A stretch of 64,000 bases of DNA from Roseivirga sp. E12 (GTDB lineage: Bacteria > Bacteroidota > Bacteroidia > Cytophagales > Cyclobacteriaceae): positions 124,001-188,000 of the forward strand of contig NZ_JAGFMD010000009.1 in the NCBI RefSeq assembly GCF_017592825.1, given 5' to 3'. Below are positions 7,896 to 48,047 of this stretch, piece by piece. The notes below the pieces were generated by a model that had not been told where the DNA came from, did no database searches, and was given only the letters and a program-made list of their open reading frames with translations. Both the position numbers and the translations under genes were made by a program. Numbering within the stretch: position 1 is the stretch's first letter; every line of letters begins with the position of its first letter.

Positions 7896-8174
7896 ATGAA
7901 TTTCTTAACTTCACTTATGTCCCAAGGCATGGAAGATTTTCTGAAATTATCTACAAGCGAACAAACACGACTGCTGTTTCTTGACGGGACTTTCATACTT
8001 TCAATTCGGTATTACGGCTATAAGGTAAATCTCTACCTCTACAAGAATGAATACTTAGAGGTTTTCTATAATCACAAGCAAGACCTGATTGAGAAGATAC
8101 AGCTACTAGACTATCAGCATACAAGAATGAAATTCTATGCTGATCAGATCAACATTAAGTCAGTCGCTAGCTGA
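7896..8174 (+). CDS. hypothetical protein (92 aa)
   Basis: A small unrecognised protein rich in Tyr and Leu (GTFILSIRYYGYKVNLYLYKNEYLEVFY) with a predicted strand-rich core. Start could be the ATG at 7896 or an internal ATG eight codons on. It follows the 125-residue unknown by 7 bp and overlaps the 3' end of convergent coaE by 15 bp. It has the feel of a small partner protein, but nothing in the sequence gives a function. Confidence 0.5.
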   Translation: MNFLTSLMSQGMEDFLKLSTSEQTRLLFLDGTFILSIRYYGYKVNLYLYKNEYLEVFYNHKQDLIEKIQLLDYQHTRMKFYADQINIKSVAS

Positions 8175-30400: not shown

Positions 30401-30561
30401 ATATCCGGGGAGGAGTTAGGGAGGCTGTAAGTAATTGTAATTGCTGGTTTGACGTAAGTCGGTGTAAAATTAACACTCAGTCTAGGAATCAAGGCAATTC
30501 CTATAATGGCCAAAACCAAAAAAGCAACAATAACTCTGAAAGGCCGATTAATAAAAGGCAT
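27403..30561 (-). CDS. RND efflux permease (first)
   Basis: A 1052-residue inner-membrane proton antiporter of the AcrB/CzcA superfamily. Twelve membrane helices with two large periplasmic loops are visible, and the helix-4 motif ISFGLIVDNAIVMLDH contains the proton-relay Asp. The N-terminus MPFINRPFRVIVAFLVLAI is typical. It is divergent from the adaptor gene 62 bp away, whereas a second permease follows that adaptor, so two pumps may share one adaptor. No TolC-type gene lies nearby. Substrate is unknown. Confidence 0.9.
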   Translation of the reverse strand: MPFINRPFRVIVAFLVLAIIGIALIPRLSVNFTPTYVKPAITITYSLPNSSPDIVERLATSPLENALSQLEGTNKVTSVSKYNGGSIEISFDKGVDVDFRKFEVSTIIRNIYRKLPENMSYPRIEQRGGENQNEAERAILSYSINGPYASYKLQQDVEEFVKKPLSQLRDLKQVDVTDGNSLQITIDFDVPTLIRYNLTKAQITTALNSMNDAVYAGMAAMSNGQQYFLKTSGQIPDMQALESIDIAIIEGKAIALKDVARLYLEEQKPNSYRRINGRNAVYLSIYAREGVNKVLLAAEVKETINQLEDGLPEGVEIILENDDTEFLAKEMNKIYIRTGLSVLILVVFIFLINRNPKYLFTLFLGIIVNLCLTVIIVYALKVELHMYSIAGVTISFGLIVDNAIVMLDHMHRKKNAKIFLALLAASLTTIMALLLVLLLPEDERRDLTDFSIVVAINLGVSLLIALFFTPSLYTLLFKERLSMGRIQTYHRLRRKVRWFKAYMKSIAFVVKYRKAFIVIVVLGFGLPVFKLPVQWEGQEWYNKTIGSDKYQDEIRPVTDKVLGGALRKFVNEVYAGFRYGSPQQTRLNVSARLPFGTTLDDANFVISKVEEYLVGIEGVDKFITNVSRGYATTQITFTDAYETSALPYQLKGRLQARSIDLTGVAWSITGVGQGFSAGGERGETPSMRVKMKGYNFDELERQAELMADKLEEHIRVNEVNTNAQVSWRSQNTSEYVLDFDIDRLATAGINRGDILRMLSDLTEPMPGNSSAAANYNNERLPVYIKASNAEAFSKYDLTEQSLPLDTGRFIKIKDYASLSFERTANEIHKEDRQYLRALTYDYNGSFKFAQRHRDEKIKEMNAEIPVGYVVETQDNYFSFQREKRQYGILLVLIVGIFFICSILFENLKQPFNIIVTIPISFIGLFLIFSLFDFPMDNGGYAAFILLGGLVVNASIFIVNDFNNSRLKNENRAILKAVVGKAQPILLTILSTCFGLIPFLLEGENEVFWFSLAIGTIGGLIFSIIAVFVCLPVFLSRKKSKSSVSEELVPEIA

Positions 30562-30623: not shown

Positions 30624-31682
30624 ATGTTTAAAAAACTACTCTTAGGTTTTCTTGTCATTTCTATTTGTGGATGTAAGACTCAAAAGACTGAGTTCGAAGA
30701 ACCAGATGTTGAATCTTTAAGAAAGGATATTCAACCAACATCTGTCGCCATAGCAACCGCCACTTATCGTCCTTTTGAGTTCCTAATCAACTCATCGGGA
30801 ACAATCAGCTCTGAAAACGAGCTAAAAATCTCATTCCAGAGCTCTGGCTATTTGGAAAGGCTCAGTATTAAGAATGGAGACCGAGTAAGTAAAGGGCAAG
30901 TGATTGGAGAACTTGAAAACACCCAACAGGAGTTTGCCAAAGAAAAAGCTCAAGTCGCTTATGAAAAAGCCTATATCACGTTTAGAGATGACTCTTTGGG
31001 TCGGTTGAGCAATATGAACGATGTGGTGGTCAATACTATGACTTTAAAAGCTGGCCTTAGAGATGCGGAAATTAATCTTCGTGAAGCACAGATCAACCTA
31101 GACAACACCATTATAAAGTCTCCAATTGATGGAATTGTGGCCGAAATGAAAGAAAAGAAGGGAGATGTAATCAGCGCAGGAAAAGAACTCTGCGTAGTCT
31201 ACGATGACAAAAACCTTGAACTAACGGCCAAAATCCTCGAATCAGACTACAAGCATTTAAAATTAGGTTTGATCGCAGACATCTATCCATTAGCCTTCAA
31301 AAATCAATCATTTGAGGCCTACCTAAAAGAAGTCAATCCAAAGGTCGATGAGAATGGCATGATAGAACTGAAACTCAAGCTTAGAGAAACACAAGGTTTA
31401 TTACCCGGAATGAATGCCAATGCAATTATTCGGGTTCCCCAGGCGAAAAACATCATAGTACCTAGAGAGGCCTTGGTTATCAAATCTCGAAGGCAGGTCG
31501 TATTTACTTATGAAAATGGATTTGCCAAGTGGAAGTATGTGGAAGTGGGTTTAGACAACGGAGTTGACATTGAAATTCTAAGCGGTCTTAATGATGGTGA
31601 TCAGGTCATCGTTTCTGAAAACCTTCAGTTGGCGCATGATGCTCAAGTTTCCATAGCCACTGAAATTGGCAATAACAACTAA
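30624..31682 (+). CDS. RND efflux periplasmic adaptor (membrane-fusion) lipoprotein
   Basis: A 352-residue lipoprotein (MFKKLLLGFLVISICGC signal). Its order is that of membrane-fusion proteins: a first half-lipoyl motif (residues about 55-95, with GDRVSKGQVIGELE), an alpha-helical hairpin (about 95-155), a second half-lipoyl segment (NTIIKSPIDGIVAEMKEKKGDVI) and a beta-barrel. It links permease and outer-membrane channel. It is 5 bp upstream of the second permease and divergent from the first, with both promoters in a 62-bp gap. Confidence 0.9.
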   Translation: MFKKLLLGFLVISICGCKTQKTEFEEPDVESLRKDIQPTSVAIATATYRPFEFLINSSGTISSENELKISFQSSGYLERLSIKNGDRVSKGQVIGELENTQQEFAKEKAQVAYEKAYITFRDDSLGRLSNMNDVVVNTMTLKAGLRDAEINLREAQINLDNTIIKSPIDGIVAEMKEKKGDVISAGKELCVVYDDKNLELTAKILESDYKHLKLGLIADIYPLAFKNQSFEAYLKEVNPKVDENGMIELKLKLRETQGLLPGMNANAIIRVPQAKNIIVPREALVIKSRRQVVFTYENGFAKWKYVEVGLDNGVDIEILSGLNDGDQVIVSENLQLAHDAQVSIATEIGNNN

Positions 31683-31687: not shown

Positions 31688-34600
31688 ATGGTAAGATTCC
31701 TGATCCAAAGACCCATTGCCGTCTTTTTGTCCTTTATAGGTATACTATTTTTTAGTGTACTCGCCATTAGGAATCTTCCTGTTTCACTACTACCAAGCAT
31801 TGAAGTACCCTCGGTAGTTATCAAAGTCGACTACCCAAACAATCCGGCACAGATTATTGAAAACAGTATTCTAAAGTCCATTCGGAGCGAGTTAAACTCA
31901 CTGAATAACCTAAAATCCATTGAAAGTACAGCTAGCAGCGAAACAGGATTGATTAAGCTTCAATTCGACTATGGTACTCGAATGGATTTGGCCTATATAG
32001 AAATCAATGAAAAAGTCGATCGTCTTCAGGAATCTCTCCCTCGTGATATGGATCGACCAAGAATTATTCGGATCAATACATCCGACATCCCGATCATTAG
32101 GATACAGGTTTTGCCCAAGAATGATTCTGATCTAGTCGCTTTATCACAACTCTCCGAACGGGTTTTAAAAAAGCGAATCGAACAGATTGAAGGCGTATCC
32201 ATTGTAGATATTAATGGCTATCGCGAGCAATTCATCTCGATAGAACCCAACGCTGCACAGCTTTCTGCACTGAACATATCTGAGTCCCAAATCGAAAGCG
32301 TGCTCAATAGCGCCAACAGAGAGCTTGGTCAACTTTCGATTAAAGATGGCCAGTACCGATACTTTGTTCGAATGGCCAATCGACTGGATGACATTGAAGA
32401 AATTAAAAAGCTACCGTTATCTACTCCAAATGGAGAAGTGGTGAGCCTTGAACAATTAGCCGATGTCAAGTTCGAGACAGAAAAAGTTCTGAGTTACCAC
32501 CTTTTTGGCCAACAAGAAGGACTGGTCATTACTGTTCACAAGCAGAATAGCGCTAAGATGACTGAGCTCGTTCCTTTGGTCTACGAAGCAATTGAAATAT
32601 TCAAAACTGATTATCCTGATGTCGATTTCGAACTGACCCAAGACCAATCCACCTTACTCAATGCCGGCATTGACAATTTGACTACCAGCTTGATCTATGG
32701 TGGCATTTTCGCATTTGGAGTGCTCTTTCTGTTCATGGGCAATTTCAAAATGCCAATCATTATGGGGATTACCCTTCCAGTCTCCTTGGTGATTAGCTTC
32801 CTGCTTTTTAGAGCAGTAGGACTGACGATAAATATTATCTCCTTAAGTGGACTTGCACTTGGACTAGGAATGCTTATCGACAATGCAATCATTGTCATCG
32901 ATAACATTACTCGAAAACGAAAGGACGGGCTTGACATCATCGAAGCCTGCATAAGTGGAGTGAATGAAGTAATGGCACCACTGATCAGTTCGGTATTAAC
33001 CACTTTGGCGGTTTTTGTTCCTCTCGTTTTCTTAAATGGTCTGTCTGGGGCGCTCTTCTATGACCAAGCAGTTTCTGTTGCAATAATCCTGGGCACTTCC
33101 TTAATGGTTGCGTTCATCTTGTTACCCCTGCTCTATCGCATATTCTTTCAAAAATCTAAAGGACAAGTCAAAGAAGACAGCTTATTCTTCAGGCTTATAT
33201 TAAAGGTTTATAAAGCCTTTTACAATCTGATCTGGAAATTCAAAGTCATAAGCTTTATCCTTTTGATCGGCTTGATACCGCTTACCTATTTTATCCTAAT
33301 CGGGTTTGAAAAAACGGGCCTTCCAGATATTGAAAAAACGGAAACCCTTCTAACTATCAATTGGAATGAACCGATCGATGCTGAAGTCAATAAAACCAGA
33401 GTCGGTGATTTGATTGATGCCCTAGAGGTAGAGGCTATTACGGAATCTGATATTGGTATCAGTCAGTTTCTATTGGCTGTCGAAGATGGCAGAGTCGAGA
33501 ATGCTCAAGTCTATTTGAAATTCAGCACACGCGAAGAGAAAGTCGAGACCGAGCAATGGATCTCCAATTTCTTCCTGCAAAGGCACCCCAATGCTTCAAC
33601 AGAAATCGAAGATGCCCCCAATGCTTTTGACCAAATATTTAAATCTCAAGGACAATATTTTGTTGCTAAATGGAAGAACCTAGGTCAAGGTGAGCTGATG
33701 AGTGAAGATGATCTATCGTCATTACAGCAAGACGTTCTAGAACTCACTAACACTCCAGCCCAAGGGGGTAAAGGCTTTCTTTTTGAAGAGTCTCTTGAAG
33801 CTACAATTGACAATGAGGCCCTGGCATTTTATGGTATTCCTGAGGGCACCTTCAAAAGCGCACTAGCCAATGCATTGGATGGCTTTTTAGTAACGGAGAT
33901 CAGGCGTTTTGGAGAAGTTATTCCAATTAAGATTCAAAGGTCAAAAGGAGACCTACAACAGCAACTAAGAGATGTTTATGTCACTGGTAGGGAAAGACAA
34001 CAATATCCTCTTTCTCAATTCATCAAGGTTGAGTTTATCAAGGTTGAAAAGAACATCACCGCAGATAGAACTGGGCCTTATCAATCTTTGGAATGGGAGT
34101 CATTATCTGATAACGACATAGAAAAACTCACCAATGAACTGCCAAAAGTCGCAGCCAAATATGGCTTAGTAGTTGACTTTAGCGGCACCTTTTTTGAAGA
34201 TCAGGAGAACCTTCGCCAGTTGATTTTTATTCTTGTTATCTCTGTGGCGCTGCTCTATTTTATTTTGGCAGCTCAGTTTGAGTCATTGGTGCAACCTCTG
34301 ATTGTCATCTTTACGCTCCCACTTGGTATTCTAGGGGCTTTGCTGGTGCTTCAGCTTGCTGGTGTTACATTAAACGTAATGTCTGCCATTGGCATTATCG
34401 TTATGCTGGGCATCATGGTGAATGATGCAATTCTGAAAATCGATACCATCAACCGACTCAGAGTAGTCCCTAACCAAAAGAGTTCTTCTAAAGAAATTCT
34501 ATCAGTAGCAATTGCAAAAACAGGTCAGATCAGACTCAAGCCAATTCTGATGACTTCCATCACTACCATTCTAGCCTTATTACCTGTGATCTTTTCTTCA

Positions 34601-34723
34601 GGTATTGGTGCTGACCTGCAAAGACCACTAGTATTCTCAGTAATTGGGGGCTTAACGATTGGTACTTTCACAGCACTATACTTTGTGCCGCTGGCGTATT
34701 GGTTTGTGAGTAGCAAAAAATGA
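31688..34723 (+). CDS. RND efflux permease (second)
   Basis: A 1011-residue AcrB/MexB-family permease with twelve membrane helices. The helix-4 motif LALGLGMLIDNAIIVIDNI carries the relay Asp. Its C-terminus reads ALYFVPLAYWFVSSKK, and the DNA of this last stretch recurs in damaged form twice downstream, at 37613-37675 and 40220-40289. It forms an operon with the adaptor. Substrate is unknown. Confidence 0.92.
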   Translation: MVRFLIQRPIAVFLSFIGILFFSVLAIRNLPVSLLPSIEVPSVVIKVDYPNNPAQIIENSILKSIRSELNSLNNLKSIESTASSETGLIKLQFDYGTRMDLAYIEINEKVDRLQESLPRDMDRPRIIRINTSDIPIIRIQVLPKNDSDLVALSQLSERVLKKRIEQIEGVSIVDINGYREQFISIEPNAAQLSALNISESQIESVLNSANRELGQLSIKDGQYRYFVRMANRLDDIEEIKKLPLSTPNGEVVSLEQLADVKFETEKVLSYHLFGQQEGLVITVHKQNSAKMTELVPLVYEAIEIFKTDYPDVDFELTQDQSTLLNAGIDNLTTSLIYGGIFAFGVLFLFMGNFKMPIIMGITLPVSLVISFLLFRAVGLTINIISLSGLALGLGMLIDNAIIVIDNITRKRKDGLDIIEACISGVNEVMAPLISSVLTTLAVFVPLVFLNGLSGALFYDQAVSVAIILGTSLMVAFILLPLLYRIFFQKSKGQVKEDSLFFRLILKVYKAFYNLIWKFKVISFILLIGLIPLTYFILIGFEKTGLPDIEKTETLLTINWNEPIDAEVNKTRVGDLIDALEVEAITESDIGISQFLLAVEDGRVENAQVYLKFSTREEKVETEQWISNFFLQRHPNASTEIEDAPNAFDQIFKSQGQYFVAKWKNLGQGELMSEDDLSSLQQDVLELTNTPAQGGKGFLFEESLEATIDNEALAFYGIPEGTFKSALANALDGFLVTEIRRFGEVIPIKIQRSKGDLQQQLRDVYVTGRERQQYPLSQFIKVEFIKVEKNITADRTGPYQSLEWESLSDNDIEKLTNELPKVAAKYGLVVDFSGTFFEDQENLRQLIFILVISVALLYFILAAQFESLVQPLIVIFTLPLGILGALLVLQLAGVTLNVMSAIGIIVMLGIMVNDAILKIDTINRLRVVPNQKSSSKEILSVAIAKTGQIRLKPILMTSITTILALLPVIFSSGIGADLQRPLVFSVIGGLTIGTFTALYFVPLAYWFVSSKK

Positions 34724-35110: not shown

Positions 35111-35335
35111 TTACTCAATCTCAGGATCTATTACGCAGTCCTGGCTTTCGACACACGGTCCATTAGGATCTACCTTATTACAGGTAAAACCAATACCGCC
35201 CTCATTGTCAACGCAAAAACGAATCTTATATCTATCACCCTCAAAAGCCTGAGCTTCAAAAGGACTAAATAACAACAGTCCAAATGCACAAAGCATTAGC
35301 ATGGACATAAATCTAATTTTTATTTTTCTTTTCAT
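35111..35335 (-). CDS. small secreted Cys-containing peptide, type A1
   Basis: A 74-residue precursor (start at 35335, since MKRKIKIRF begins the signal; an ATG three codons earlier is possible). The signal ends at FEAQA near residue 30. The mature part is about 44 residues with four Cys, and its core GDRYKIRFC...DPNGPC...DC, ending DPEIE, is shared with the neighbouring peptide. It is not a family I can name firmly; the layout recalls the NVEALA-type small peptides of Bacteroidales. It lies 2 bp downstream of peptide A2 (11 bp from its stop with the preferred start). Confidence 0.7.
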   Translation of the reverse strand: MKRKIKIRFMSMLMLCAFGLLLFSPFEAQAFEGDRYKIRFCVDNEGGIGFTCNKVDPNGPCVESQDCVIDPEIE

Positions 35336-35346
35336 GATATTCACAT

Positions 35347-35565
35347 TTACTCAATTGTTGGGGTTTCACATACTGTCTGTTCATCACAGGGACCTGAAGG
35401 ATCTGTCGCTCCACATTTTCCACCCATTTTGCCTTCATCTGTGGTACACTTCTCAATTTTGTAACGGTCACCAAACTCATATGCCTTCACCTGATTTGGA
35501 CTAAGCATCAATGCTCCTACGCTCAACAACATGGCTGCAGAAAGCATTTTCATATTTTTATTCAT
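35347..35565 (-). CDS. small secreted Cys-containing peptide, type A2
   Basis: A 72-residue precursor with a signal peptide ending near NQVKA (residue 28). The mature part starts YEFGDRYKIEKC and has four Cys, a DPSGPC motif and the C-terminus ETPTIE. It is a clear paralog of the next peptide downstream (GDRYKI, C, DEG, G, C, DP-GPC, C). It is exported by Sec and probably released or surface-bound. It is preceded by a short element that also precedes the peptide genes of the other two modules. Confidence 0.72.
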   Translation of the reverse strand: MNKNMKMLSAAMLLSVGALMLSPNQVKAYEFGDRYKIEKCTTDEGKMGGKCGATDPSGPCDEQTVCETPTIE

Positions 35566-35586
35566 AATAAAACGATTTATTTATCC

Positions 35587-35629
35587 CTACTCTATTCATG
35601 GGTTTTCGGAATCCCCAATGCTATACCTT
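35587..35629 (-). pseudogene. remnant of a peptide 3' end, or conserved leader (module A)
   Basis: Read on the minus strand, this segment gives YSIGDSENP, stop, IE, stop. It resembles the C-termini of the neighbouring peptides (DPEIE, SIGEN) and the parallel segments at 39965 and 42842. The shared DNA core is CCTACTCT plus GGTTTTCGG on the plus strand. It lies 21 bp before the peptide start codon. The alternative is a structured leader, because a 4-bp stem flanking TTTTCGG is kept in all three copies. Confidence 0.4.
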
Positions 35630-36112
35630 TTATATTCTTTTCAAAAAATCATCATAACTGGCCTTCCCGAAAATGTCTATAAACTCAATCTTTCCGTTCT
35701 TATAGAGGATGTATTTATCTGAGGCATATACTAATCCTAATGACTCAAATAGGCCCTCATTGTCAATTAAATAATGAGCATCCGAGTCGTCTAAGACCCC
35801 TTTAAACTCAGTCCATAAATCATGTCCACTTGGATTTTTTATTATAAAAAATGTTGATTCATTTAATTCATGAACCCTTTCTGATAAAAATGCTATGTTT
35901 TCCTTAACACACCCGCACTCCCTCAAAATCAAATACACAACGTTTTTAGGTACAAAACCATCTGACACTATATAATCACTATATACCTTGTTCAACTGAT
36001 TAATTTCTTCCGGACTTATACTATCTAAATTATTGTTATCAACGCTAGAACCGCATGACCAACATAAGGTCAAAAACAACAATCCAATCATATTCCATCG
36101 AATAATTCTCAT
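35630..36112 (-). CDS. thioredoxin-like lipoprotein, CGC type (module A)
   Basis: A 160-residue lipoprotein (signal to LCWSC, with ATGs at 36112 and 36091 as possible starts). The body resembles a thioredoxin-fold protein: VVYLILRECGCVKENIAFL near residues 58-76 puts a CGC in place of a CxxC, then FFIIKNP, AHYLIDNEGLFESLGL, YILYKNGKIEFI. Compared with its counterparts in modules B and C (CSTC) the active site is altered. It follows the propeller gene by 12 bp. Periplasmic thiol chemistry on the Cys peptides is a reasonable inference. Confidence 0.6.
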   Translation of the reverse strand: MRIIRWNMIGLLFLTLCWSCGSSVDNNNLDSISPEEINQLNKVYSDYIVSDGFVPKNVVYLILRECGCVKENIAFLSERVHELNESTFFIIKNPSGHDLWTEFKGVLDDSDAHYLIDNEGLFESLGLVYASDKYILYKNGKIEFIDIFGKASYDDFLKRI

Positions 36113-36124
36113 ATTAATTCCTTA

Positions 36125-37285
36125 TTAAATTGTAACTTTAAAAAACTTGCATACCCCTTGTTCATTAACAAAAAACTGAACCCAGATTTCACTCTTAATT
36201 GAAAACGCCAAATTGTGATTAACCATACTGAAGGGAAGTTGCCATTCGGAAAACGTAGAATTTTCAAGGTCAATAACCGATAGATTTACAGGCTTCTTTC
36301 TATTGGCATCTCTGAAATCTGAATTGTTATTTGGAAAATTAGATCTAAAAAGCCTCACCAACTTCCTGTCTACTAAGGGCAATAAAATCCCATAATCGGG
36401 ACTCATTATAGCATGCCTCATTTTAGCATCTTCTTGCACAGTTTGGTCGAAATCCATTTTTTGCGTCTCATCTTCGATATACTCAGAACTCATAGTAAAT
36501 ATTCTTTCCGTTTCCTGATCCCTATCAAATTCAAAAACCTTTGATAGAGCTGGAAAACTGGCATATGACTTAGATCCAATATGACTGATTACTGGTTGAT
36601 CTAGATATCCATAGTAATACTCGCGATACTCATCAGGAAAAGTGAAAGGAAGCACTTTCATTTCTGAAGAAGAAAGTTCATATTTCCCAATCAAGCTAGT
36701 TCCATAAAATTCCTCAGGACTGGCTGTCCCAGAAATACTGGTACTATATAAGCCCATTAGAAAGCTTTTGTCTGTGTCGTCATATGAGAAACTTGAATTC
36801 CCATATCCATCAAACATGTAACGATTGGAAAAACGGTCTTCTCCATATCTGAAATCCCATTTATTCAACAGATCACCCGTTGCATTCAATAAGTAGATGG
36901 AATAATCTGAGAGAATAAAAATACTATCTCTAGAATAGTAATCTATCGCATTGACCGTCCGAATCCCTTTAGGTCCTTCTTGTTCTAGACTAAGCGAGGA
37001 CAAATATTCTTGCTGCGATAAGGAAAAGAAAGATATTGCATGAACTCTTTCATGGTACCCAGCATAAAAAGCACCTTCAGAATCTTCAAGAATAGAAAGT
37101 ATTGGAAAGTACTCTGGAACACCTTCAGGGACCGAAATTTCGACAACTTGGGTTTTTACCGTCATCTTCTTCCCGGACTCTCTCAATAATATAGGTTCAA
37201 TAAACCCTTTCTCTCTCTCCCTACAAGCTGAAAAGAGTATAACATAAAAAATCAGGCAAGCGATTGAAAACCTCACTCTATTCAT
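36125..37285 (-). CDS. six-bladed beta-propeller-type lipoprotein (module A)
   Basis: A 386-residue lipoprotein (MNRVRFSIACLIFYVILFSAC). The mature chain shows repeated four-strand units of the kind in Bacteroidota DUF4221/BF3164-type six-bladed propellers (for example VNAIDYYSRDSIFILSDYSIYLLNATGDLLNKWDF written here in part as SIFILSDYSIYLLNATG). It lies first in its module and is followed by the thioredoxin-like gene. It should sit in the periplasm or outer membrane; binding to the peptides is a guess from linkage. Confidence 0.7.
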   Translation of the reverse strand: MNRVRFSIACLIFYVILFSACREREKGFIEPILLRESGKKMTVKTQVVEISVPEGVPEYFPILSILEDSEGAFYAGYHERVHAISFFSLSQQEYLSSLSLEQEGPKGIRTVNAIDYYSRDSIFILSDYSIYLLNATGDLLNKWDFRYGEDRFSNRYMFDGYGNSSFSYDDTDKSFLMGLYSTSISGTASPEEFYGTSLIGKYELSSSEMKVLPFTFPDEYREYYYGYLDQPVISHIGSKSYASFPALSKVFEFDRDQETERIFTMSSEYIEDETQKMDFDQTVQEDAKMRHAIMSPDYGILLPLVDRKLVRLFRSNFPNNNSDFRDANRKKPVNLSVIDLENSTFSEWQLPFSMVNHNLAFSIKSEIWVQFFVNEQGVCKFFKVTI

Positions 37286-37720
37286 GGTAAACAGTTAATA
37301 ATTTCAACTCTTGCGATAAATATAAATACTTTTTTGAATTATTAAAATACTTTCTAGTACTTCTTTTATGCTCTTTACTAATTCTAATCTAATTTTGTCA
37401 TAGAATTAATCTTCAATGCTTTTATTAAAAAAAAAAGCTCTTAACTATATTCTATACATAATCTAAAACATATTAATTTACTCTGAGGTATTTTCTTTGA
37501 CTCGATTACACACCAAGACTAATAGTCATTATCATTCACAACCATGATAAAGCCCACTCTGACATCATGCCATCTTACCTCCATTGGTATAACTGATTAT
37601 TGTAGCCCACCCATTGACACTTTCGCAGCCCTCTACTTTGTGCCTTTGGCTTATTGGTTTGTCAGTAGGAAGTGAGAAAAGCAAAAAGAACTTACCAACC
37701 TATTAGCCCACACCATGTGA
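37286..37720. other. intergenic region between modules A and B
   Basis: These 435 bp hold no intact gene. The left 215 bp are very AT-rich and should contain the promoter of the module A propeller gene (minus strand). The right part contains the duplication junction described at 37501-37675. Confidence 0.7.
37501..37675 (+). repeat. duplication junction: htpG-promoter-like segment fused to RND permease tail
   Basis: The part 37501-37600 matches the htpG upstream region 43161-43241 by eye (CTCGATTA, CACCAAG-like, GACATCATGCCA, CTTAC, TTGGTAT). The part 37613-37675 encodes PIDTFAALYFVPLAYWFVSRK followed by TGA in fragments, i.e. DTFAALYFVPLAYWFV, almost identical to the RND permease C-terminus at 34656-34723. 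The same fusion recurs at 40141-40289. It is best read as the junction left by tandem duplication. Confidence 0.75.
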
Positions 37721-38281
37721 TTACCTGTGAGCCATTAGCTCATGATATTCACGACTTCTATTAGGAGTAGAAATACTTGCAAAAAATACTGCTCGTGGGC
37801 TTTCACCACCTCCCAAAATAAAAAAAGTCGGATTCGTAAATCGAGTTAGAAGGTTTGACAGCGTGGAATGAATCATATAAGTAGGGAATTCAAAATCCCT
37901 TAATAATAAATACAGTTTTAAGTCTCTCATAGAGCTGTAATTGGCAAAGAGAATAAATTCTTCTTTCCCATAAACCTCTTTTATCAGTTCAAGTTCTTGA
38001 TCAATGCAGGTGGAACATTGTATATCCGATATATAACCAATTACCCTGTTTTCTAAGTCAAGATGTTCTAGTCTCAATTCTAAACCTGTTGAAAGCTCCA
38101 TTATTTTAGCACTCATTATCAGCGATTCCGTTTCGAAGGCATAAGTCAATGAATCCAAAATACTTAAGCCATCCAACTCTTCTAAATAGTCAGGATCTAC
38201 CATCTTATTCTCAAGGCCGCCATTATGCTCGCAGGAAACTAAGAGTGTCAAAAGCAATACCTTGACTACCGAATTTCGCAT
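37721..38281 (-). CDS. thioredoxin-like lipoprotein, CSTC type (module B)
   Basis: A 186-residue lipoprotein (MRNSVVKVLLLTLLVSC). Near residue 90 the strand-plus-CxxC pattern RVIGYISDIQCSTCIDQEL marks a thioredoxin/TlpA-like fold. It continues with EEFILFANY and NPTFFILGGG. It overlaps the propeller gene of the same module by 16 bp, so the two are translationally coupled. Periplasmic disulfide handling is inferred from the motif and from the Cys-bearing peptide gene in the module. Confidence 0.65.
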   Translation of the reverse strand: MRNSVVKVLLLTLLVSCEHNGGLENKMVDPDYLEELDGLSILDSLTYAFETESLIMSAKIMELSTGLELRLEHLDLENRVIGYISDIQCSTCIDQELELIKEVYGKEEFILFANYSSMRDLKLYLLLRDFEFPTYMIHSTLSNLLTRFTNPTFFILGGGESPRAVFFASISTPNRSREYHELMAHR

Positions 38282-39495
38282 TTCATTATAATTGGATTGC
38301 TTAATTCATTGACCCCCTCCAACAACCTAAACACTTCTGGTCGAGCACTCTTCAATTCCCTAAGCAGTTTTTTGTCCTTGACTCCGGAGAGCTCTTTTTT
38401 TACTGCATACAACTGTTCTACTTCTAATGGAATGTAGAAATGATTGTCCTTCACGTAAATCGGAAAGTCGCTTACTCCGCCATACAACAGGTCGTCACTG
38501 ATACCATTGTAACCACTGAATTTGTTTGTGCTTTTATCATGAATGAGGGTGAGTATTGCCCCCTTGTGAAGGACCCTAAACAAAACATGTTTTTGGGACT
38601 CTAGAATTGGCCAATTAAAAAGAAATGTATATTCATGTTGCCGAGACTCTAAATTTCTGCCCTCTTGCAGGAGAAAAGTTGGCACTTGATTATCCGAGAC
38701 AATTTTGTATCTCAACTCCACGGAATCACCAGACATTTGAAAAATGTCCACTCCCCATGGTTGAAAAAACAAGAAAGAATCTTGATGAACCGACTGGTTA
38801 GAAGTTAGAGGCTGTGAAGTGTACTTTGACATGGCAGTACCCTCATTCCTAAGAAACCTATCCGAGATTTTGGGGCCCTCTAAAAAGATTATCTGATAAT
38901 TCAAATCGCCATAACCTGTCGTATTATTACTGAAAGCCATTTTTCCATCTTCAAACAAAAACATTGAGTGACTAAAAAAGGGGATCTCACTCCTAGCTAT
39001 AAAACGATTATTTAGGTCATATTCAGACACTCTAAAGCCTCGATCCATTAGTAATATTCTAGAATCTCTAAACTCAATGTCTATAAGTTCATCATGTTCG
39101 TCTGGTCCTTGACCTTGTACGCCCACCTCAAACAGGAAATCTCCATTTTCCCTGAACAGGAATGCCGATTTTGAAATTCTGTCGTCTAGGATTAGAATGT
39201 ATCCGTTAGACATCTTCATTTTAGAAACCCTTCCAATTATAATATGACTTGGAGTATTTAATTCAATGTAACTTCGGTTTAAAAATACTTCCGATACATT
39301 TCCAAAGGTGCGATCAATCTGCGAAGGGTATAATTCAACAGCTTCTGAAGTAATTAACTTGCGTGGAGAACTCGCCACCAAGGTAAAATTCTTCATCCTT
39401 TCTGTGTTTAATCTATCATCTATATTATTACCGCTATAACAGCCAGCAATCAGTGATGTGGAAACAAGAATGGCATAGAATGTCTTTCTAGTCAT
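38266..39495 (-). CDS. six-bladed beta-propeller-type lipoprotein (module B)
   Basis: A 409-residue lipoprotein (signal to SLIAGC). The mature chain is built of repeated strand units such as YILILDDRISKSAFLF, IEFRDSRILLMDRGFRV and MAFSNNTTGYGDLNYQ, with the GxGPDE pattern (GVQGQGPDEHDELID) that recurs in Bacteroidota six-bladed propellers. Module C has the same motif as GVKGFGPNE. It lies downstream of the module B peptide, separated by two hairpins, and is coupled to the CSTC protein. Ligand is unknown. Confidence 0.75.
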   Translation of the reverse strand: MTRKTFYAILVSTSLIAGCYSGNNIDDRLNTERMKNFTLVASSPRKLITSEAVELYPSQIDRTFGNVSEVFLNRSYIELNTPSHIIIGRVSKMKMSNGYILILDDRISKSAFLFRENGDFLFEVGVQGQGPDEHDELIDIEFRDSRILLMDRGFRVSEYDLNNRFIARSEIPFFSHSMFLFEDGKMAFSNNTTGYGDLNYQIIFLEGPKISDRFLRNEGTAMSKYTSQPLTSNQSVHQDSFLFFQPWGVDIFQMSGDSVELRYKIVSDNQVPTFLLQEGRNLESRQHEYTFLFNWPILESQKHVLFRVLHKGAILTLIHDKSTNKFSGYNGISDDLLYGGVSDFPIYVKDNHFYIPLEVEQLYAVKKELSGVKDKKLLRELKSARPEVFRLLEGVNELSNPIIMKCEIR

Positions 39496-39509
39496 ATGGT
39501 TGAATTAGA

Positions 39510-39554
39510 GGTCTGAAGAGTCATCAGACCTTAACCCCTATTCAAAGGGTTAAG
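39510..39554 (-). promoter_or_regulatory. double hairpin between peptide and propeller genes (module B)
   Basis: GGTCTGA/TCAGACC (39510-39530) and CCTTAACCC/GGGTTAAGG (about 39528-39555) form two adjacent stems sharing a boundary. No T-run follows, so they are more likely processing or partial-termination structures that let the peptide be made in excess. Confidence 0.55.
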
Positions 39555-39582
39555 GCTGAACTCAATATAAAAGTGAAGAGTA

Positions 39583-39942
39583 TTAAGTATGGTTTACTAC
39601 TTCACCAGCCGAGCCAGACTCCCTATTTGGACAAGGCTGAATGGGTGTAGTATTTGTTATTTCCGGTATGGCACCAGCATCATAGCAACCCCATGCCCAG
39701 CCAGGGCAAGATTTGATTCTGCCAGAGTAATGAGCATAGACCACATTGCCCGAACCTGTAATTGAAGCACCGCCTCCACCCGGGGTAACTTCACCAGAGA
39801 CCCCTCCTGAGCCACTAACTGAACACTCGATTTTGATTATTGTTGTAGTGTATGTCTCTGTGCCAAAAAGGCCATAACTGGTATTTACAAAGAAGGCACT
39901 AAGCATCAAAATTGCTGATACTAAGAATAGTCGTTTTATCAT
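39583..39942 (-). CDS. secreted Gly-rich peptide (module B)
   Basis: A 119-residue precursor with a signal ending near SYG (residue 24). The mature chain of about 95 residues begins with Thr-rich TETYTTTIIKIEC, has a Gly/Ser block (SGSGGVSGEVTPGGGGASITGSG) and a C-terminal part with four more Cys (SCPGWAWGCYD, PCPN). It is larger than and unlike the module A and C peptides but takes the same position, with the same upstream element. I do not recognise a family. Confidence 0.65.
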   Translation of the reverse strand: MIKRLFLVSAILMLSAFFVNTSYGLFGTETYTTTIIKIECSVSGSGGVSGEVTPGGGGASITGSGNVVYAHYSGRIKSCPGWAWGCYDAGAIPEITNTTPIQPCPNRESGSAGEVVNHT

Positions 39943-39964
39943 TTGATTATGATTGAATCACTAC

Positions 39965-40057
39965 CTACTCTATTTCTGGATTTTCGGCACCCTCCATGAT
40001 AAAAGAACCGCCAGCAAACACAAGATGGATGATTATATTATTTATATCAAATATTTT
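39965..40057 (-). pseudogene. remnant of a peptide gene 3' end, or conserved leader (module B)
   Basis: Thirty codons are open on the minus strand, with no upstream start, and end in LVFAGGSFIMEGAENPEIE-stop. The GGS and the ENPEIE tail resemble the C-termini of the module C (GGSIGEN) and module A (DPEIE) peptides. The stop lies 22 bp before the ATG of the module B peptide. It parallels the segments at 35587 and 42842. Confidence 0.45.
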
Positions 40058-40140
40058 TTATGATTTTTTCTTCTAAATAATGAAATACAATCTAAGAATC
40101 ACTTGGAACAATCATCAGTGATTTGCGATCATCATTTTAG

Positions 40141-40289
40141 TCTTTCTCCTTTAATCAGATCTTGATGACATTCTACCACCCATTCTCTCTTTGTATAACG
40201 TTTGATTATTGTGACCTATCCATCGGCACCTTAACAGCACCTTACCCTGTGCCCTTGACGTATTGGCTTGTGAGTAGGAACAGGAGTGA
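40141..40289 (+). repeat. second duplication junction (htpG-promoter-like plus RND tail)
   Basis: It aligns by eye with 37561-37675 over its full length: GATGACATT, TTTGTATAAC, GATTATTGT, then a decayed tail encoding SIGTLTAPYPVPLTYWLVSR and a stop at 40287-40289. The tail matches the RND permease C-terminus but with more changes (F to P, A to T, F to L), as expected of unselected sequence. Confidence 0.72.
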
Positions 40290-40402
40290 CTAAGGAAAGA
40301 GAAGAATAAATATCTAAATCACTAGAAAGTACTTTGCCCGTCAAGACTTGTAAGAAAACAAAAATGTTATAGCAGGGCTAATGACAGGCAAGCACCAGAT
40401 TG

Positions 40403-40894
40403 TTAATTTGACTTTAGAATTAGTGATTTGAATTTATTGCTCCTTGAAGACGTTCCCACAGGATTTCCTCGCTCAATAATTCGACCATTACTATTCAGTA
40501 ACAAGGTCTGATGATCCTTATTGGCACTGATCTGGTTATCATCAAAAAATTTATATTCCAAATCGTAAAAATAACTGACCTTAAATTCCGACTTATGAAA
40601 GACATAATCTATGTCAATTCTATCTCTTCCACTTACAACAAAGAGTATATCCATTCTACTACTAAGATCATTCTTTATCACAAAATCTTTCCACAGCTCC
40701 ATTTCCACAAAGCATGTTGAACAGCCCGAATTCAGGTACTTTACTAAAGTAAAATGACCCTTAGGAAATTGCAATAATTCCGGTTTTACCTGAATGTTTT
40801 GATCTAAAAACTGTTTGGACACTATAATTTCATCTACACTCTGAAATTGAGTGATAAGCAAAATTGATAAACCGATTATGAGCTTGTTAGGCAT
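40403..40894 (-). CDS. thioredoxin-like exported protein, CSTC type (module C)
   Basis: The start at 40894 gives MPNKLIIGLSILLITQF, a signal or anchor. The longer frame lies inside the propeller gene. The 163-residue protein has HFTLVKYLNSGCSTCFVEMELW, a strand followed by CSTC at the start of a helix, as in thioredoxin-like folds. It continues with DILFVVSG, a YFYDLEYKFF stretch and TLLLNSNGRIIERG, which resembles the last two strands of TlpA-type proteins. It overlaps the propeller gene by 8 bp. Confidence 0.68.
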   Translation of the reverse strand: MPNKLIIGLSILLITQFQSVDEIIVSKQFLDQNIQVKPELLQFPKGHFTLVKYLNSGCSTCFVEMELWKDFVIKNDLSSRMDILFVVSGRDRIDIDYVFHKSEFKVSYFYDLEYKFFDDNQISANKDHQTLLLNSNGRIIERGNPVGTSSRSNKFKSLILKSN

Positions 40895-42008
40895 CTCCGT
40901 ATTTATATTCAAATTGAACAATGTCTGGCAATTCACTAGCAGAAACCCCATAGATATAGCCATTCTTTTCGTCTACAGTTATGCTCCTTATTAATTGGTC
41001 TAACACAAGTTTTTCAACTACATATCCCTCCTTGTTAAATACATAAATCTCATTGCACAATTCTTTGCCATTTGGATTTCCATCCCATTTCTTACCTGAA
41101 AACAGACCATATACAAACTGTTCTCCAACATAAACATCCATATACCCATGGTGAGTCTCTTTCGGGTCAATTGCTAACACATTGCTTCCTTGGACTCGAG
41201 CTACCTCAAATCTAGGTTCTATATCCAGGGGACCGACTATTTCAATGATTTCATTGTCATCTATATTGAGTAATTCAAGTTGATCAATATAAATGGAGGA
41301 ATGTGCAAAAAGAGTGTTTTCTGAATTGGCTCTTAGGAGGCCTTGATAAAACTGTGCCCACACTCCCTTAGGATATTTTTGACTGAGCGGCTCATCATAG
41401 TCTCCATACCTTTTCAATTCATTGCCCAGTGTATCATACTCAGTGAATCTCGAAAGCCCATCTACTGTTAAACCAATAAGTGTACTTCTATTAGACCACC
41501 CTACACGAAAGCTGGTAAAATCTCCTTCCCTAAAAGTATATTGCTTTTCGGCCAGGCCTGAGACATTATTTTTGGACAAGTCAAACTTAGAAAACCGCCT
41601 TTGCTGTAAATCATAAGACCACACGTAGCCAGGGTTTGAACTGTTTAAACTTAGGGCCTTGCTTGCCGTCATGATTTCGTTGGGCCCAAAACCTTTAACT
41701 CCGAGAGATTTAACATATTTTTTGTCAGAAGCATTGACCACATGAATGAGGCTATCAGCATTTAGATCGCTGATAATTAGATAAGGGTCATTGTACATCA
41801 CAGACATCGGAAAAACCACATGCTCAGCCAGATCGAGTGGTTTTGCCTCTAACTTTTTGACTACTGTGACAAGGTCATCTGTAAACTTAATGGTCTTCAC
41901 CGTGGTGAATCCATCACTTGATTTTCTAGTTTGAACATCAAAACTGGCTGTATTCTTACAACCAACAATGATGAGTATTAAAAAGAGTAATGAAAGTTTC
42001 TTTATCAT
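40887..42008 (-). CDS. six-bladed beta-propeller-type lipoprotein (module C)
   Basis: A 373-residue lipoprotein (MIKKLSLLFLILIIVGC) of the Bacteroidota six-bladed propeller type, with DPYLIISDLNADSLIHVVN, SLGVKGFGPNEIMTASKALS, a GYVWSYDLQQRRFSKFDL blade and a final NGYIYGVSASELPDIVQFEY. It follows the three peptide genes of module C, separated by one strong hairpin, and is coupled to the CSTC gene. Linkage suggests it acts on, or is acted on by, the peptides; this is inference. Confidence 0.78.
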   Translation of the reverse strand: MIKKLSLLFLILIIVGCKNTASFDVQTRKSSDGFTTVKTIKFTDDLVTVVKKLEAKPLDLAEHVVFPMSVMYNDPYLIISDLNADSLIHVVNASDKKYVKSLGVKGFGPNEIMTASKALSLNSSNPGYVWSYDLQQRRFSKFDLSKNNVSGLAEKQYTFREGDFTSFRVGWSNRSTLIGLTVDGLSRFTEYDTLGNELKRYGDYDEPLSQKYPKGVWAQFYQGLLRANSENTLFAHSSIYIDQLELLNIDDNEIIEIVGPLDIEPRFEVARVQGSNVLAIDPKETHHGYMDVYVGEQFVYGLFSGKKWDGNPNGKELCNEIYVFNKEGYVVEKLVLDQLIRSITVDEKNGYIYGVSASELPDIVQFEYKYGDA

Positions 42009-42032
42009 AATTTGCTATTGCTATTGATTGAG

Positions 42033-42062
42033 ATGGAGGTTATACCGAAGTACAACCTCCAT
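42033..42062 (-). promoter_or_regulatory. hairpin between peptide and propeller genes (module C)
   Basis: ATGGAGGTT (42033-42041) and AACCTCCAT (42054-42062) form a perfect 9-bp stem with a 12-nt loop, 30 bp after the last peptide gene. It takes the same place as the module B hairpins. No T-run follows on the minus strand. Confidence 0.6.
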
Positions 42063-42091
42063 TGTTGGTGTTAAACCTATTTGGAGTGAAA

Positions 42092-42325
42092 TTAATTTTC
42101 CCCAATAGAGCCTCCTCCTCCACTACCAGGGCAGTCACCTTCAGATAGGTAATAAGCGTTGTCTACCATATAGAATAGCACAAAACAAATAGCACCCGAC
42201 TGCGTAGGGCAGCAAGTGCCGTTAGTTGGAGGTGGTGTTGTTTGCGCCTGAGACTGTTTGGGTGCCACCATAGTCAGTGCTAATAGCACGACCGACATTA
42301 TTGATATTGCAATTTTACTTCGCAT
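42092..42325 (-). CDS. small secreted Cys-rich peptide, type C3
   Basis: A 77-residue precursor with a signal ending near QSQAQ (residue 28). The mature peptide has a Thr/Pro-rich head, then GTCCPTQSGAICFV, YYLSEGDCPG and the tail GGGGSIGEN. The pattern CC-x7-C-x17-C gives four Cys, enough for two disulfides. It shares about half of its mature residues with the two upstream peptides. It is secreted by Sec, and the propeller follows after a hairpin. Confidence 0.8.
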   Translation of the reverse strand: MRSKIAISIMSVVLLALTMVAPKQSQAQTTPPPTNGTCCPTQSGAICFVLFYMVDNAYYLSEGDCPGSGGGGSIGEN

Positions 42326-42350
42326 AATTTTATCTATTTGTTAAACATCA

Positions 42351-42578
42351 TTAATTCTCACCGATGGTTCCACCACCTCCACCTCCGGGATTAGGACAAT
42401 CACCGCTCGACAGGTAATAATAATTCTCGAGCATATTAGTGCCAACTATACATATAGCACCTGACTGAGTAGGGCAGCAAGTACCCGAAGGAGGTGTCTG
42501 AGCTTCTACCTTAACGGTCGAAAACATTGCAACACCGATAAACATTAAACTGAGTAATCCTATTATCTTTTTTTTCAT
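42351..42578 (-). CDS. small secreted Cys-rich peptide, type C2
   Basis: A 75-residue precursor with a signal ending near KVEAQ (residue 27). The mature part is TPPSGTCCPTQSG, AICIVG, then YYYLSSGDCPN and a six-Gly tail ending TIGEN. It is the middle copy of three tandem paralogs. The KVEA cleavage region is reminiscent of the NVEALA motif of Bacteroidales small peptides, though the match is short. Confidence 0.8.
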   Translation of the reverse strand: MKKKIIGLLSLMFIGVAMFSTVKVEAQTPPSGTCCPTQSGAICIVGTNMLENYYYLSSGDCPNPGGGGGGTIGEN

Positions 42579-42591
42579 TTTGTTTTAAGTT

Positions 42592-42819
42592 TTAATTTTC
42601 TCCAATACTTCCTCCACCACCATTACCGGGGCAGTCACCTTCTGTTAAATAGTAATAACCTACTTTATAAAGAAGTCCTACAAAGCAGATTGCTCCAGAA
42701 TCCGTTGGGCAACAAGTTCCTGTTGGAGGGGCTTGTTGAGCCTTTAGACTGCTTGAGCCGGCCATCGACACTCCCACAATTGCAATTGCAAGCAGGCTTG
42801 TTTTAATTTTTTTTAACAT
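42592..42819 (-). CDS. small secreted Cys-rich peptide, type C1
   Basis: A 75-residue precursor, first of the module C operon, with a signal ending near LKAQQ (residue 28). The mature part is APPTGTCCPTDSGAICFVG, then GYYYLTEGDCPG and GNGGGGSIGEN. It has the same four-Cys frame as C2 and C3. It starts 22 bp after the peptide-tail remnant, and the AT-rich region upstream should hold the operon promoter. Confidence 0.8.
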   Translation of the reverse strand: MLKKIKTSLLAIAIVGVSMAGSSSLKAQQAPPTGTCCPTDSGAICFVGLLYKVGYYYLTEGDCPGNGGGGSIGEN

Positions 42820-42841
42820 GTGTATGATTTTAAATTTTCAC

Positions 42842-42901
42842 CTACTCTGTTTTAGGGTTTTCGGTATTCCCCTTCGACAATTTGCAAATCTTGAATTGAT
42901 A
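42842..42901 (-). pseudogene. remnant of a peptide gene 3' end, or conserved leader (module C)
   Basis: Nineteen codons between two stops read YQFKICKLSKGNTENPKTE on the minus strand. The ENPKTE end matches the ENPEIE of module B and SENP of module A. There is no start codon. It lies 22 bp before the first peptide gene, as in the other modules. Confidence 0.42.
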
Positions 42902-43160: not shown

Positions 43161-43241
43161 CTCGATTAAACATCAATCTTTAGTCAAGAATGACATCATG
43201 TCACCTTACATTCCTTGGTATGGCATTTGATATTGTCGCTA
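43161..43241 (+). repeat. htpG upstream segment, source of the junction repeats
   Basis: This segment contains CTCGATTA, GACATCATG and TTGGTATGGCATTTGATA. Diverged copies lie at 37501-37600 and 40141-40217. It ends 26 bp before the htpG start codon and probably includes its promoter; the TTGG-N8-TTTGA spacing resembles a -24/-12 element, but a housekeeping promoter is equally possible. Confidence 0.65.
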
Positions 43242-43267
43242 CAGATTAAAACAATGACAAAATAGCT

Positions 43268-47865: not shown

Positions 47866-47897
47866 AGAATTATTCTAAAATCCACCCTCATTTATAA

Positions 47898-47935
47898 CCG
47901 ACCGCCAGCGAACACTACTGTTCTTGAGGGAACAG
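47898..47935 (+). promoter_or_regulatory. putative activator site upstream of second FtsX permease
   Basis: The 19-mer CCGACCGCCAGCGAACACT (47898-47916) is identical to the one at 45217. It is followed by CTGTTC (47918-47923) and GAACAG (47930-47935), an inverted repeat with changed sequence but kept symmetry. Confidence 0.55.
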
Positions 47936-47993
47936 AGTATTCAAATTTCAAAACCAAAAATGCCCCTTACTATCTTAAAATGTACATTTTCTT

Positions 47994-48009
47994 TTGGCAT
48001 TGCTTTTGG
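47994..48009 (+). promoter_or_regulatory. candidate sigma-54 promoter of second FtsX permease
   Basis: TTGGCATTGCTTTTGG has GG and GG separated by 10 bp, with a full TTGGCA -24 box and TTGG as -12 box. It lies 38 bp before the ATG and 96 bp after the start of the activator site, mirroring the first copy. Confidence 0.5.
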
Positions 48010-48047
48010 AAAGCATTATCTGATTTAGAATAATTAAATTGATTGCG

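What the first reader, a model, noticed from the sequence alone, without database searches (positions are those of the whole stretch)
35111..42819. Three-module locus: secreted small peptides + propeller lipoprotein + thioredoxin-like protein
Sequence: six short precursors with signal peptides (74-119 aa) lie beside three propeller-type lipoproteins and three thioredoxin-like proteins, always on the minus strand and with overlaps of 8-16 bp between propeller and thiol gene in modules B and C. Knowledge: Bacteroidales carry NVEALA-type small peptides next to six-bladed propeller lipoproteins. Inference: a secreted peptide is folded or oxidised by the thiol protein and handled or presented by the propeller lipoprotein, perhaps as a signal, antimicrobial or surface coat. 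The combination of CC-type peptides with a dedicated CSTC protein looks undescribed.
Basis: partly seen in the sequence, partly recalled or inferred. Interest (0 to 1): 0.85.

Follow-up and report, generated by a model that had tools for sequence, protein, structure and literature searches.

The report
Swappable secreted-peptide cassettes beside efflux pump
A Roseivirga-like bacterium carries interchangeable gene cassettes, each making small disulfide-rich secreted peptides plus a partner lipoprotein, next to a conserved membrane pump; related bacteria keep the pump but carry quite different cassettes, as expected of strain-specific weapons or signals.

Summary
The reported genes are there: six signal-peptide precursors, three propeller lipoproteins, two plausible thioredoxin-like proteins and one doubtful third. 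(1) Each peptide group is preceded by a DUF805b RNA (Rfam RF02914); the genome has four above cut-off, each before a secreted-peptide gene. (2) The modules lie between RND2, a permease of an RND1-MFP-RND2 efflux locus, and htpG. Of 80 RND2 loci elsewhere, 59 hold a propeller in the DNA fetched and 29 have one directly before MFP-RND2. (3) The cassettes are hypervariable. At the RND2-htpG site, propellers of five genomes are 19-28% identical between genomes while RND2 is 67-88% and HtpG 83-95%. Before MFP, the five pairs with 95-97% identical RND2 carry 19-27% identical propellers; in the pairs compared as DNA the flanks align and the cassette does not. One relative has an empty site. Peptide and propeller are inherited together. 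NVEALA peptides (PF14055) elsewhere in the class show the same order. My reading: strain-specific, disulfide-bonded peptides with a cognate propeller (immunity or binding partner), probably exported by the RND pump. Cassette exchange is shown; linkage to the pump is supported; export, immunity and activity are inferred.

The parts
27403..30561 (-). RND1, RND efflux permease (1052 aa), divergent from MFP
   Evidence: ORF; NF033617 E 4.7e-93, 313 bits, below that model's curated cut-off
30624..31682 (+). MFP, RND periplasmic adaptor (352 aa)
   Evidence: TIGR01730 E 3e-51, above cut-off
31688..34723 (+). RND2, RND efflux permease (1011 aa); conserved anchor of the hot-spot
   Evidence: PF00873 E 2.4e-165; 80 relatives
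35111..35344 (-). Precursor C2, 77 aa, signal peptide, 4 Cys in mature part
   Evidence: aligned with C1; the C1-C2 profile matches only this genome among 245 of its family at E<=0.001
35347..35565 (-). Precursor C1, 72 aa, signal peptide, 4 Cys
35584..35618 (-). DUF805b RNA, 18 nt before the C1 start codon
   Evidence: RF02914, 36.7 bits, gathering 35.6; distance
35630..36112 (-). 160-aa protein with signal-like start and CGC motif; thioredoxin-like nature unproven
   Evidence: pLDDT 52; no hit at E<=0.001
36125..37285 (-). Propeller lipoprotein C (386 aa)
   Evidence: PF13970 DUF4221 E 5.5e-12
37613..37671 (+). Remnant of an RND2 3' end between modules C and B
   Evidence: 83% over 59 bases to 34658-34716, E 5e-11
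37721..38281 (-). Thioredoxin-like lipoprotein B (186 aa, CSTC)
   Evidence: profile; fold match to ResA/TlpA-type proteins, low-confidence model
38266..39495 (-). Propeller lipoprotein B (409 aa)
   Evidence: PF17170 DUF5128 E 8.4e-25
39583..39942 (-). Precursor B, 119 aa, signal peptide, 4 Cys
   Evidence: not searched in other genomes
39962..39997 (-). DUF805b RNA, 19 nt before precursor B
   Evidence: 45.1 bits; distance
40222..40280 (+). Remnant of an RND2 3' end between modules B and A
   Evidence: 78% over 59 bases, E 1e-6
40403..40894 (-). Thioredoxin-like protein A (163 aa from the ATG at 40894; CSTC), 8 bp overlap with the propeller gene
   Evidence: assignment by motif, position and signal-like start only, no profile match
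40887..42008 (-). Propeller lipoprotein A (373 aa)
   Evidence: PF15869 TolB_like E 5.8e-32
42092..42325 (-). Precursor A3, 77 aa, GTCCP..SGAIC core
42351..42578 (-). Precursor A2, 75 aa
42592..42819 (-). Precursor A1, 75 aa
   Evidence: the A1-A3 profile matches only this genome among 245 of its family at E<=0.001
42839..42874 (-). DUF805b RNA, 19 nt before precursor A1
   Evidence: 44.8 bits; distance
43182..43267 (+). htpG leader: far boundary of the cassette array; matches the empty site of L164
   Evidence: 82% to L164 13007-13092, at the very end of RND2 there

Best explanation
The locus is an array of exchangeable cassettes parked at a fixed hot-spot beside an RND1-MFP-RND2 efflux locus. 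Each cassette makes one to three small Sec-exported disulfide-rich peptides and a propeller lipoprotein inherited with them, sometimes with a thioredoxin-like exported protein. Most likely the peptide enters the periplasm through Sec, gets its disulfides there with help of the thioredoxin-like protein, is bound by its own propeller lipoprotein, and is pumped out by MFP-RND2 with an outer-membrane channel. Outside it acts between strains (antagonism or kin discrimination), the propeller being the producer's immunity or binding protein. In this genome and some near relatives a 35-nt DUF805b pseudoknot RNA just before the first peptide gene sets expression. Shown: gene content, co-inheritance, hypervariability with conserved flanks, empty site, covarying RNA pseudoknot. 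Supported but not proven: functional link to the RND pump, thioredoxin fold. Inferred: disulfide formation by that protein, regulation by the RNA, export route, immunity, antagonism.
For: Hypervariability: at the RND2-htpG site, propellers of five genomes (window, L154, L160, L225, G192) are 19-28% identical between genomes against RND2 67-88% and HtpG 83-95%. Directly before MFP, 29 of 80 RND2 loci have a propeller; of 131 pairs with RND2 at 70% or more, 116 have propellers below 30%; extreme pairs RND2/MFP/propeller 97/96/19, 96/96/21, 96/94/24, 95/94/27, 95/94/23. In L198/L203 the DNA aligns at 85% and 91% on the two sides and not over 7289-8884 / 6835-8885, which holds the cassette. Empty site L164 and RND2 3'-end remnants between modules. 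Co-inheritance: Mantel r 0.67 over 64 automatic peptide-propeller pairs, 0.29 without similar propellers; 0.78 and 0.38 over the 57 pairs left after dropping seven doubtful ones, 0.88 and 0.48 over 47 without the NVEALA loci; 0 of 500 permutations each. One cassette type lies at different chromosomal places in two genomes: mature peptides 34 of 54 identical, propellers 48%. Even Cys in 47 of 51 peptide families. A full set of RND permease, adaptor and outer-membrane channel lies about 3 kb from an NVEALA peptide gene in L253. DUF805b also stands before pinensin-type lanthipeptide precursors. Precursors A1-A3 and C1-C2 match no other of 245 family genomes.
Against: No activity, export or binding is tested. 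Mature peptides are mildly acidic (median net charge -2), unlike many membrane-active bacteriocins (recalled). Fifteen of the 131 pairs have propellers at 30-92%, among them the pairs with RND2 at 98-99%. Twenty-one of 80 RND2 loci have no propeller in the DNA held; of 205 propellers of 300 aa or more collected, 125 plus 22 in arrays have no flagged peptide, some by failure of the crude screen. Linkage to RND2 in whole genomes is weaker than it looks: 5 of 7 genomes, chance 4e-5, but the window's genome and two chosen for a cassette-like hit are in that set; in the four other same-genus genomes with RND2 it is 3 of 4, chance 0.005. A thioredoxin-like gene follows only 7 of 121 propellers by the strict test. 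No outer-membrane channel gene was looked for beside RND2 in the window. DUF805b was not found at gathering score in 7 sources (six around NVEALA hits, and L325) nor in 6 from Algoriphagus and Marivirga, so it is not part of the general system. The Mantel result shows inheritance as a unit, not binding.
Confidence: 0.4

Rival explanations
1. Pheromone types: the peptide is a strain-specific signal and the propeller its periplasmic or surface binding partner; polymorphism keeps signalling private, as in known pherotype loci.
For: Hypervariable, co-inherited peptide and partner; acidic Cys-paired peptides; a leader RNA before the peptides in this genome.
Against: Pfam scans of the three window propellers and eight others show no transducing domain above cut-off (one sub-cut-off CHASE4 match in L175). 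Neighbours were not annotated for sensor kinases or other regulators, so this is weak.
Confidence: 0.22
2. Neutral hot-spot: the RND operon is just a tolerant place for gene exchange and has no functional tie to the cassettes.
For: Propellers also occur far from RND2 and in peptide-less arrays; 21 of 80 RND2 loci have none in the DNA held; L157 and L164 have RND2 but no propeller; whole-genome linkage is modest.
Against: Two different sites, before MFP and behind RND2, hold the same kind of cargo; the one same-genus genome of the eight searched without a close RND2 also has no propeller hit (G149).
Confidence: 0.2
3. Diversifying envelope proteins (antigenic variation or phage evasion), the peptides being modulators of the propeller.
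For: Extreme divergence between close relatives; predicted lipoproteins.
Against: Does not explain the short Cys-paired secreted peptides or the pump; surface exposure was not tested.
Confidence: 0.12

Closest known systems
NVEALA peptide (PF14055) plus propeller lipoprotein gene pairs (Bacteroidales by recall)
   Same: Short signal-anchored Cys-rich precursor directly before a 6-bladed propeller gene, often tandem, once followed by a CxxC protein alignable with that of module B (L248-L253)
   Different: No NVEALA leader here (0 PF14055 matches in this genome), different peptides, DUF805b RNA and RND2 hot-spot instead
Hypervariable bacteriocin-immunity region of blp type in streptococci (recalled, no call)
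   Same: Fixed exporter with swapped small-peptide and partner cassettes
   Different: Sec signal peptides and an RND pump here rather than double-glycine leaders and an ABC exporter; lipoprotein propeller partner; activity unknown
DUF805b RNA, RF02914
   Same: All three elements and a fourth in the genome reach the Rfam gathering score; pseudoknot covaries
   Different: Downstream genes here are secreted peptide-propeller cassettes; what Rfam's authors reported downstream was not read
NHLRC2 (human; PMC6107167, start of abstract seen in a search listing)
   Same: Thioredoxin-like and NHL propeller domains found together
   Different: There one fused protein; here separate exported proteins

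Membership tests
NVEALA peptides (PF14055) | NVEALA leader recognised by the Pfam model | tested here: not met
   none in own genome at E<=0.001; 4 of 295 class genomes match
NVEALA peptides (PF14055) | Peptide gene directly before a propeller lipoprotein gene | tested here: met
   (modules A and B; module C differs); same order in L248-L252
DUF805b RNA (RF02914) | Score above curated cut-off | tested here: met
   45.1, 44.8, 36.7 bits against 35.6
DUF805b RNA (RF02914) | Conserved pseudoknot with covariation | tested here: met
   101 distinct of 103 sites; P1 pairs 91, 98, 91, 75% formed against 42, 97, 57, 49% shuffled; third P2 pair 93% against 45%, 0 of 1000; the two inner P2 pairs hardly vary; a fourth P2 pair is not supported (38% against 41%). 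Sites were picked by the Rfam model, which favours the helix it scores
6-bladed propeller lipoproteins (PF15869, PF17170, PF13970) | Curated model score and lipobox | tested here: met
   for all three window proteins (over cut-off); lipobox by eye and by script
Thioredoxin-like (ResA/TlpA type) | CxxC at the start of the first helix in a thioredoxin fold | tested here: inconclusive
   module B: six PDB hits at E<=0.001, named thiol-disulfide oxidoreductase, ResA or putative thioredoxin, but model pLDDT 52 and no Pfam match; A by motif only; C not supported
Tripartite RND exporter | Permease and adaptor | tested here: met
Tripartite RND exporter | Outer-membrane channel encoded alongside | not tested
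   not searched in the window; present beside the RND pair of L253 (PF02321)
Bacteriocin-immunity locus | Swapped peptide-partner cargo beside a fixed exporter | tested here: met
   (exporter role of RND2 inferred)
Bacteriocin-immunity locus | Antibacterial activity and specific immunity | not testable with these tools
   needs bench work
Double-glycine-leader peptides (pinensin or other RiPP) | GG-type leader model | tested here: not met
   no such NCBIfam match for precursors C2, C1, B and A3; A1 and A2 not scanned

The most novel reading that the evidence does not exclude
Bacteroidota carry an undescribed class of strain-specific secreted-peptide systems: Sec-exported disulfide peptides, each with a cognate propeller lipoprotein and sometimes its own oxidoreductase, released by a dedicated RND pump and traded between strains as whole cassettes; NVEALA loci are the same system in other families of the class, and DUF805b is a leader RNA of secreted and modified peptides in part of the phylum.
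Probability: 0.3. Interest if true: 0.9.

Novelty: new variant of a known kind. Interest (0 to 1): 0.75.

Why it matters
Many small Cys-rich peptides and propeller lipoproteins of Bacteroidota have no known function. A hypervariable cassette beside a constant RND pump turns them into a testable system of strain-to-strain interaction, would give an RND pump a natural folded-peptide substrate, and links an orphan Rfam RNA to secreted-peptide genes. The NVEALA connection would carry it to gut bacteria (habitat by recall).

Tried and rejected
NVEALA membership by Pfam: rejected. Module C 160-aa protein as thioredoxin: not supported. Amidating-lyase idea (some peptides end in Gly): only 6 of 51 families end in G, and in the propeller alignment only the lipobox Cys and one Pro are nearly invariant; dropped. 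Orphan-immunity reading of the tandem propeller arrays in G118, G171 and G192: array members are only 28% (median best) identical to cassette propellers, so not supported. DUF805b as a marker of this system alone: rejected, since at 103 sites examined it precedes many gene kinds (25 short with signal-like start, 32 short with a GG motif, 15 other short, 15 long exported, 12 long other, 4 without an ATG ORF within 120 nt; crude script classes) and it was not found in the Algoriphagus, Marivirga and NVEALA sources scanned. Thioredoxin protein B as single query: 8 of 196 genomes at E<=0.01, weak. Its profile A3: 40 of 395 at E<=1e-4, but only four at E<1e-15, and two of these (own genome, G300) were rows of the profile; the two new ones, G570 and G547, both lie directly behind a propeller; many weaker hits are larger open frames of 475-494 aa and were not followed. 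The L304 CSWC and L303 CGDC proteins, first flagged by script as thioredoxin-like, were dropped (motif in the signal region; the peptide itself). Paper searches on DUF805b, NVEALA, DUF805, propeller plus peptide, the propeller DUF names, structured RNAs, propeller plus RND, propeller plus bacteriocin, pinensin, and propeller plus thioredoxin gave no description of such a system in the library held, which lacks most subscription papers; I saw only listings and starts of abstracts, and two passages of PMC10434189. The 2017 paper that I recall as the source of DUF805b was not held.

Caveats on method: propeller profiles were grown by iteration on the fetched loci, window included, so counts lean on them; an independent Pfam check of the 29 propellers before MFP gave 11 DUF5128, 6 DUF4221 and 5 TolB_like matches at E<=0.001 (overlap between families not shown, so at most 22 of 29), and of eight proteins of four extreme pairs two had no Pfam match at 0.01. 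The 24-nt pattern was drawn from the three sites it finds. The 100 fetched DUF805b loci are a part of the sites listed over cut-off, plus the contig 5 site. Seven of 64 peptide-propeller pairs were dropped by hand or length before the Cys count (57, then 51 clusters); the Mantel test was run with and without them. Part of the NVEALA leader was counted as mature peptide. Propeller hits were merged into genes by hand.


Full report
What is there. The window lies in an unnamed 4.7-Mb genome whose RND2 is 68-82% identical to those of records named Roseivirga. On the minus strand between RND2 (31688-34723) and htpG (43268) lie six precursors of 72-119 aa with signal peptides, three propeller lipoproteins from three Pfam families, two CSTC proteins and one 160-aa CGC protein. 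Modules A and B run peptide(s), propeller, CxxC protein; module C runs propeller, 160-aa protein, RNA, two peptides. A further cassette sits on contig 5 (80-aa precursor, 378-aa propeller).

A shared leader RNA. The three peptide groups are preceded by a common element that scores as Rfam DUF805b (RF02914). The genome has four DUF805b above cut-off, each 18-19 nt before a secreted-peptide gene. In 118 family genomes 50 have a site over the cut-off; in 296 genomes of the phylum 59 have. I read 103 sites (100 fetched, including the contig 5 site, and three in the window; not all sites listed): the median distance to the first ATG is 21 nt and the RNA is a covarying H-type pseudoknot with P1 of 4 bp and P2 of 3 bp. 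Its downstream genes are mixed but rich in short ORFs (72 of 103 with a first ORF of 150 aa or less), including pinensin-type lanthipeptide precursors (3 of 8 hand-picked DUF805b-led proteins above the model cut-off, one just below). At gathering score it is present at the RND2-htpG cassettes of L160, L225 and G192 (L316) and before an L155 cassette; in L154 there is only a pattern match. It was not found in 7 sources (six around NVEALA hits, and L325) or 6 from Algoriphagus and Marivirga.

The pump. RND2 was used to fetch 80 relatives with up to 10-kb flanks. Of these, 59 hold at least one propeller in the DNA held (135 profile hits in 1778 kb); the 100 DUF805b loci hold 5 in 764 kb, in three loci. 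In 29 of 80 a propeller stands within 1.7 kb before MFP-RND2 in the same direction, 16 of them with a flagged peptide ORF in front, at least two of which look spurious (L169, L190). In eight whole genomes, five of the seven with an RND2 relative at 44% identity or more carry a propeller within 10 kb of it, chance 4e-5; the eighth, G149, has neither. This set is not neutral: it includes the window's genome and two chosen for a cassette-like hit. In the four remaining same-genus genomes it is 3 of 4, chance 0.005; singly, G118 and G171 would be unremarkable (P 0.21 and 0.14).

Hypervariable cargo. At the RND2-htpG site the window, L154 and L225 (named Roseivirga), L160 (a Cytophagales MAG) and G192 (same genus, unnamed) carry propellers 19-28% identical between genomes while RND2 is 67-88% and HtpG 83-95% identical. 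L154 and L225 have unrelated cassettes (propellers 23%) although RND2 is 88% and HtpG 95% identical; their DNA aligns up to the RND2 stop and again from the htpG leader. L164 has the bare junction: RND2 stop, about 75 nt, htpG. In the window, RND2 3'-end remnants lie between the modules, as expected if cassettes were added or duplicated at that end. Before MFP, 116 of 131 pairs with RND2 at 70% identity or more have propellers under 30% identical; the other 15, among them the pairs with RND2 at 98-99%, have 30-92%. All five pairs with RND2 at 95-97% have propellers 19-27% identical. In the pairs compared as DNA, the blocks that fail to align take in the peptide-propeller(-CxxC) cassettes (cleanest in L198/L203, L190/L191, L191/L229). 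One extreme pair even differs in Pfam family (L175 TolB_like, L205 DUF5128). Precursors A1-A3 and C1-C2 have no relative in the other 244 of 245 family genomes searched; precursor B was not searched.

Peptide and propeller travel together. Over 64 automatically paired genes, peptide similarity follows propeller similarity (Mantel r 0.67; 0.29 without similar propellers); with seven doubtful pairs removed r is 0.78 and 0.38, and without NVEALA loci 0.88 and 0.48; 0 of 500 permutations in each test. The cassette on contig 5 here and the one at the RND2-htpG site of G192 are one type: mature peptides 34 of 54 identical, propellers 48%, at different chromosomal places. This shows inheritance as a unit; it does not prove binding.

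The thiol protein. Profile A3 gives matches at E<1e-15 in four of 395 class genomes. Two of them, this genome and G300, were rows of the profile; the two new ones, G570 and G547, lie directly behind a propeller, the latter with a Cys-rich ORF in front. The G300 protein lies in an NVEALA cassette. Weaker hits were not followed. The module B model is of low confidence, but its six PDB hits at E<=0.001 are thiol-disulfide oxidoreductases, ResA and a putative thioredoxin. The gene is optional: 7 of 121 propellers have it by the strict test.

Wider family. NVEALA peptides occur in 4 of 295 class genomes and in none of this family's members of that sample. Where they occur (L248-L253) the order is mostly peptide then propeller, and in L253 an RND permease, adaptor and outer-membrane channel lie in a row about 3 kb from the peptide. 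So the window system and the NVEALA loci share an architecture while the peptides differ.

Interpretation. Constant pump, swapped cargo, peptide and partner as a unit, paired cysteines and an oxidoreductase fit best a strain-specific secreted-peptide system in which the propeller protects or escorts. The Sec signal places the peptide where an RND pump takes its substrates, the periplasm (general knowledge). I give this mechanism 0.4. A signalling reading (0.22), a neutral hot-spot (0.2) and envelope diversification (0.12) remain. That the cassettes are real, conserved in kind and exchangeable I hold at about 0.85.

Noticed in passing
L051, L059, L078 (DUF805b sites): DUF805b RNA stands directly before pinensin-type lanthipeptide precursors; this hints at a leader RNA for secreted or modified peptides.
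   Followed up: partly
L045, L047, L050, L077, L082, L092: DUF805b-led 79-97 aa signal-like precursors beside a 437-454 aa gene and, further on, a larger gene (873-1073 aa) on the opposite strand (SusD/SusC-like by size only).
   Followed up: no
L310, L314, L317: Tandem runs of 6 to 9 propeller genes, nearly all without a credible peptide, in three same-genus genomes; distinct from cassette propellers.
   Followed up: partly
L089, L091: DUF805b 23-24 nt before a 499-aa aldehyde dehydrogenase-like gene, unlike the peptide genes elsewhere (gene name by recall).
   Followed up: no
window 45364-50555: Two consecutive 833- and 838-aa genes with similar starts downstream of htpG, ABC-permease-like by recall.
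   Followed up: no
L190 7400-8791 versus L229: Propeller 90% identical but no intact matching peptide detected in L190, an apparent peptide loss with the propeller kept.
   Followed up: no
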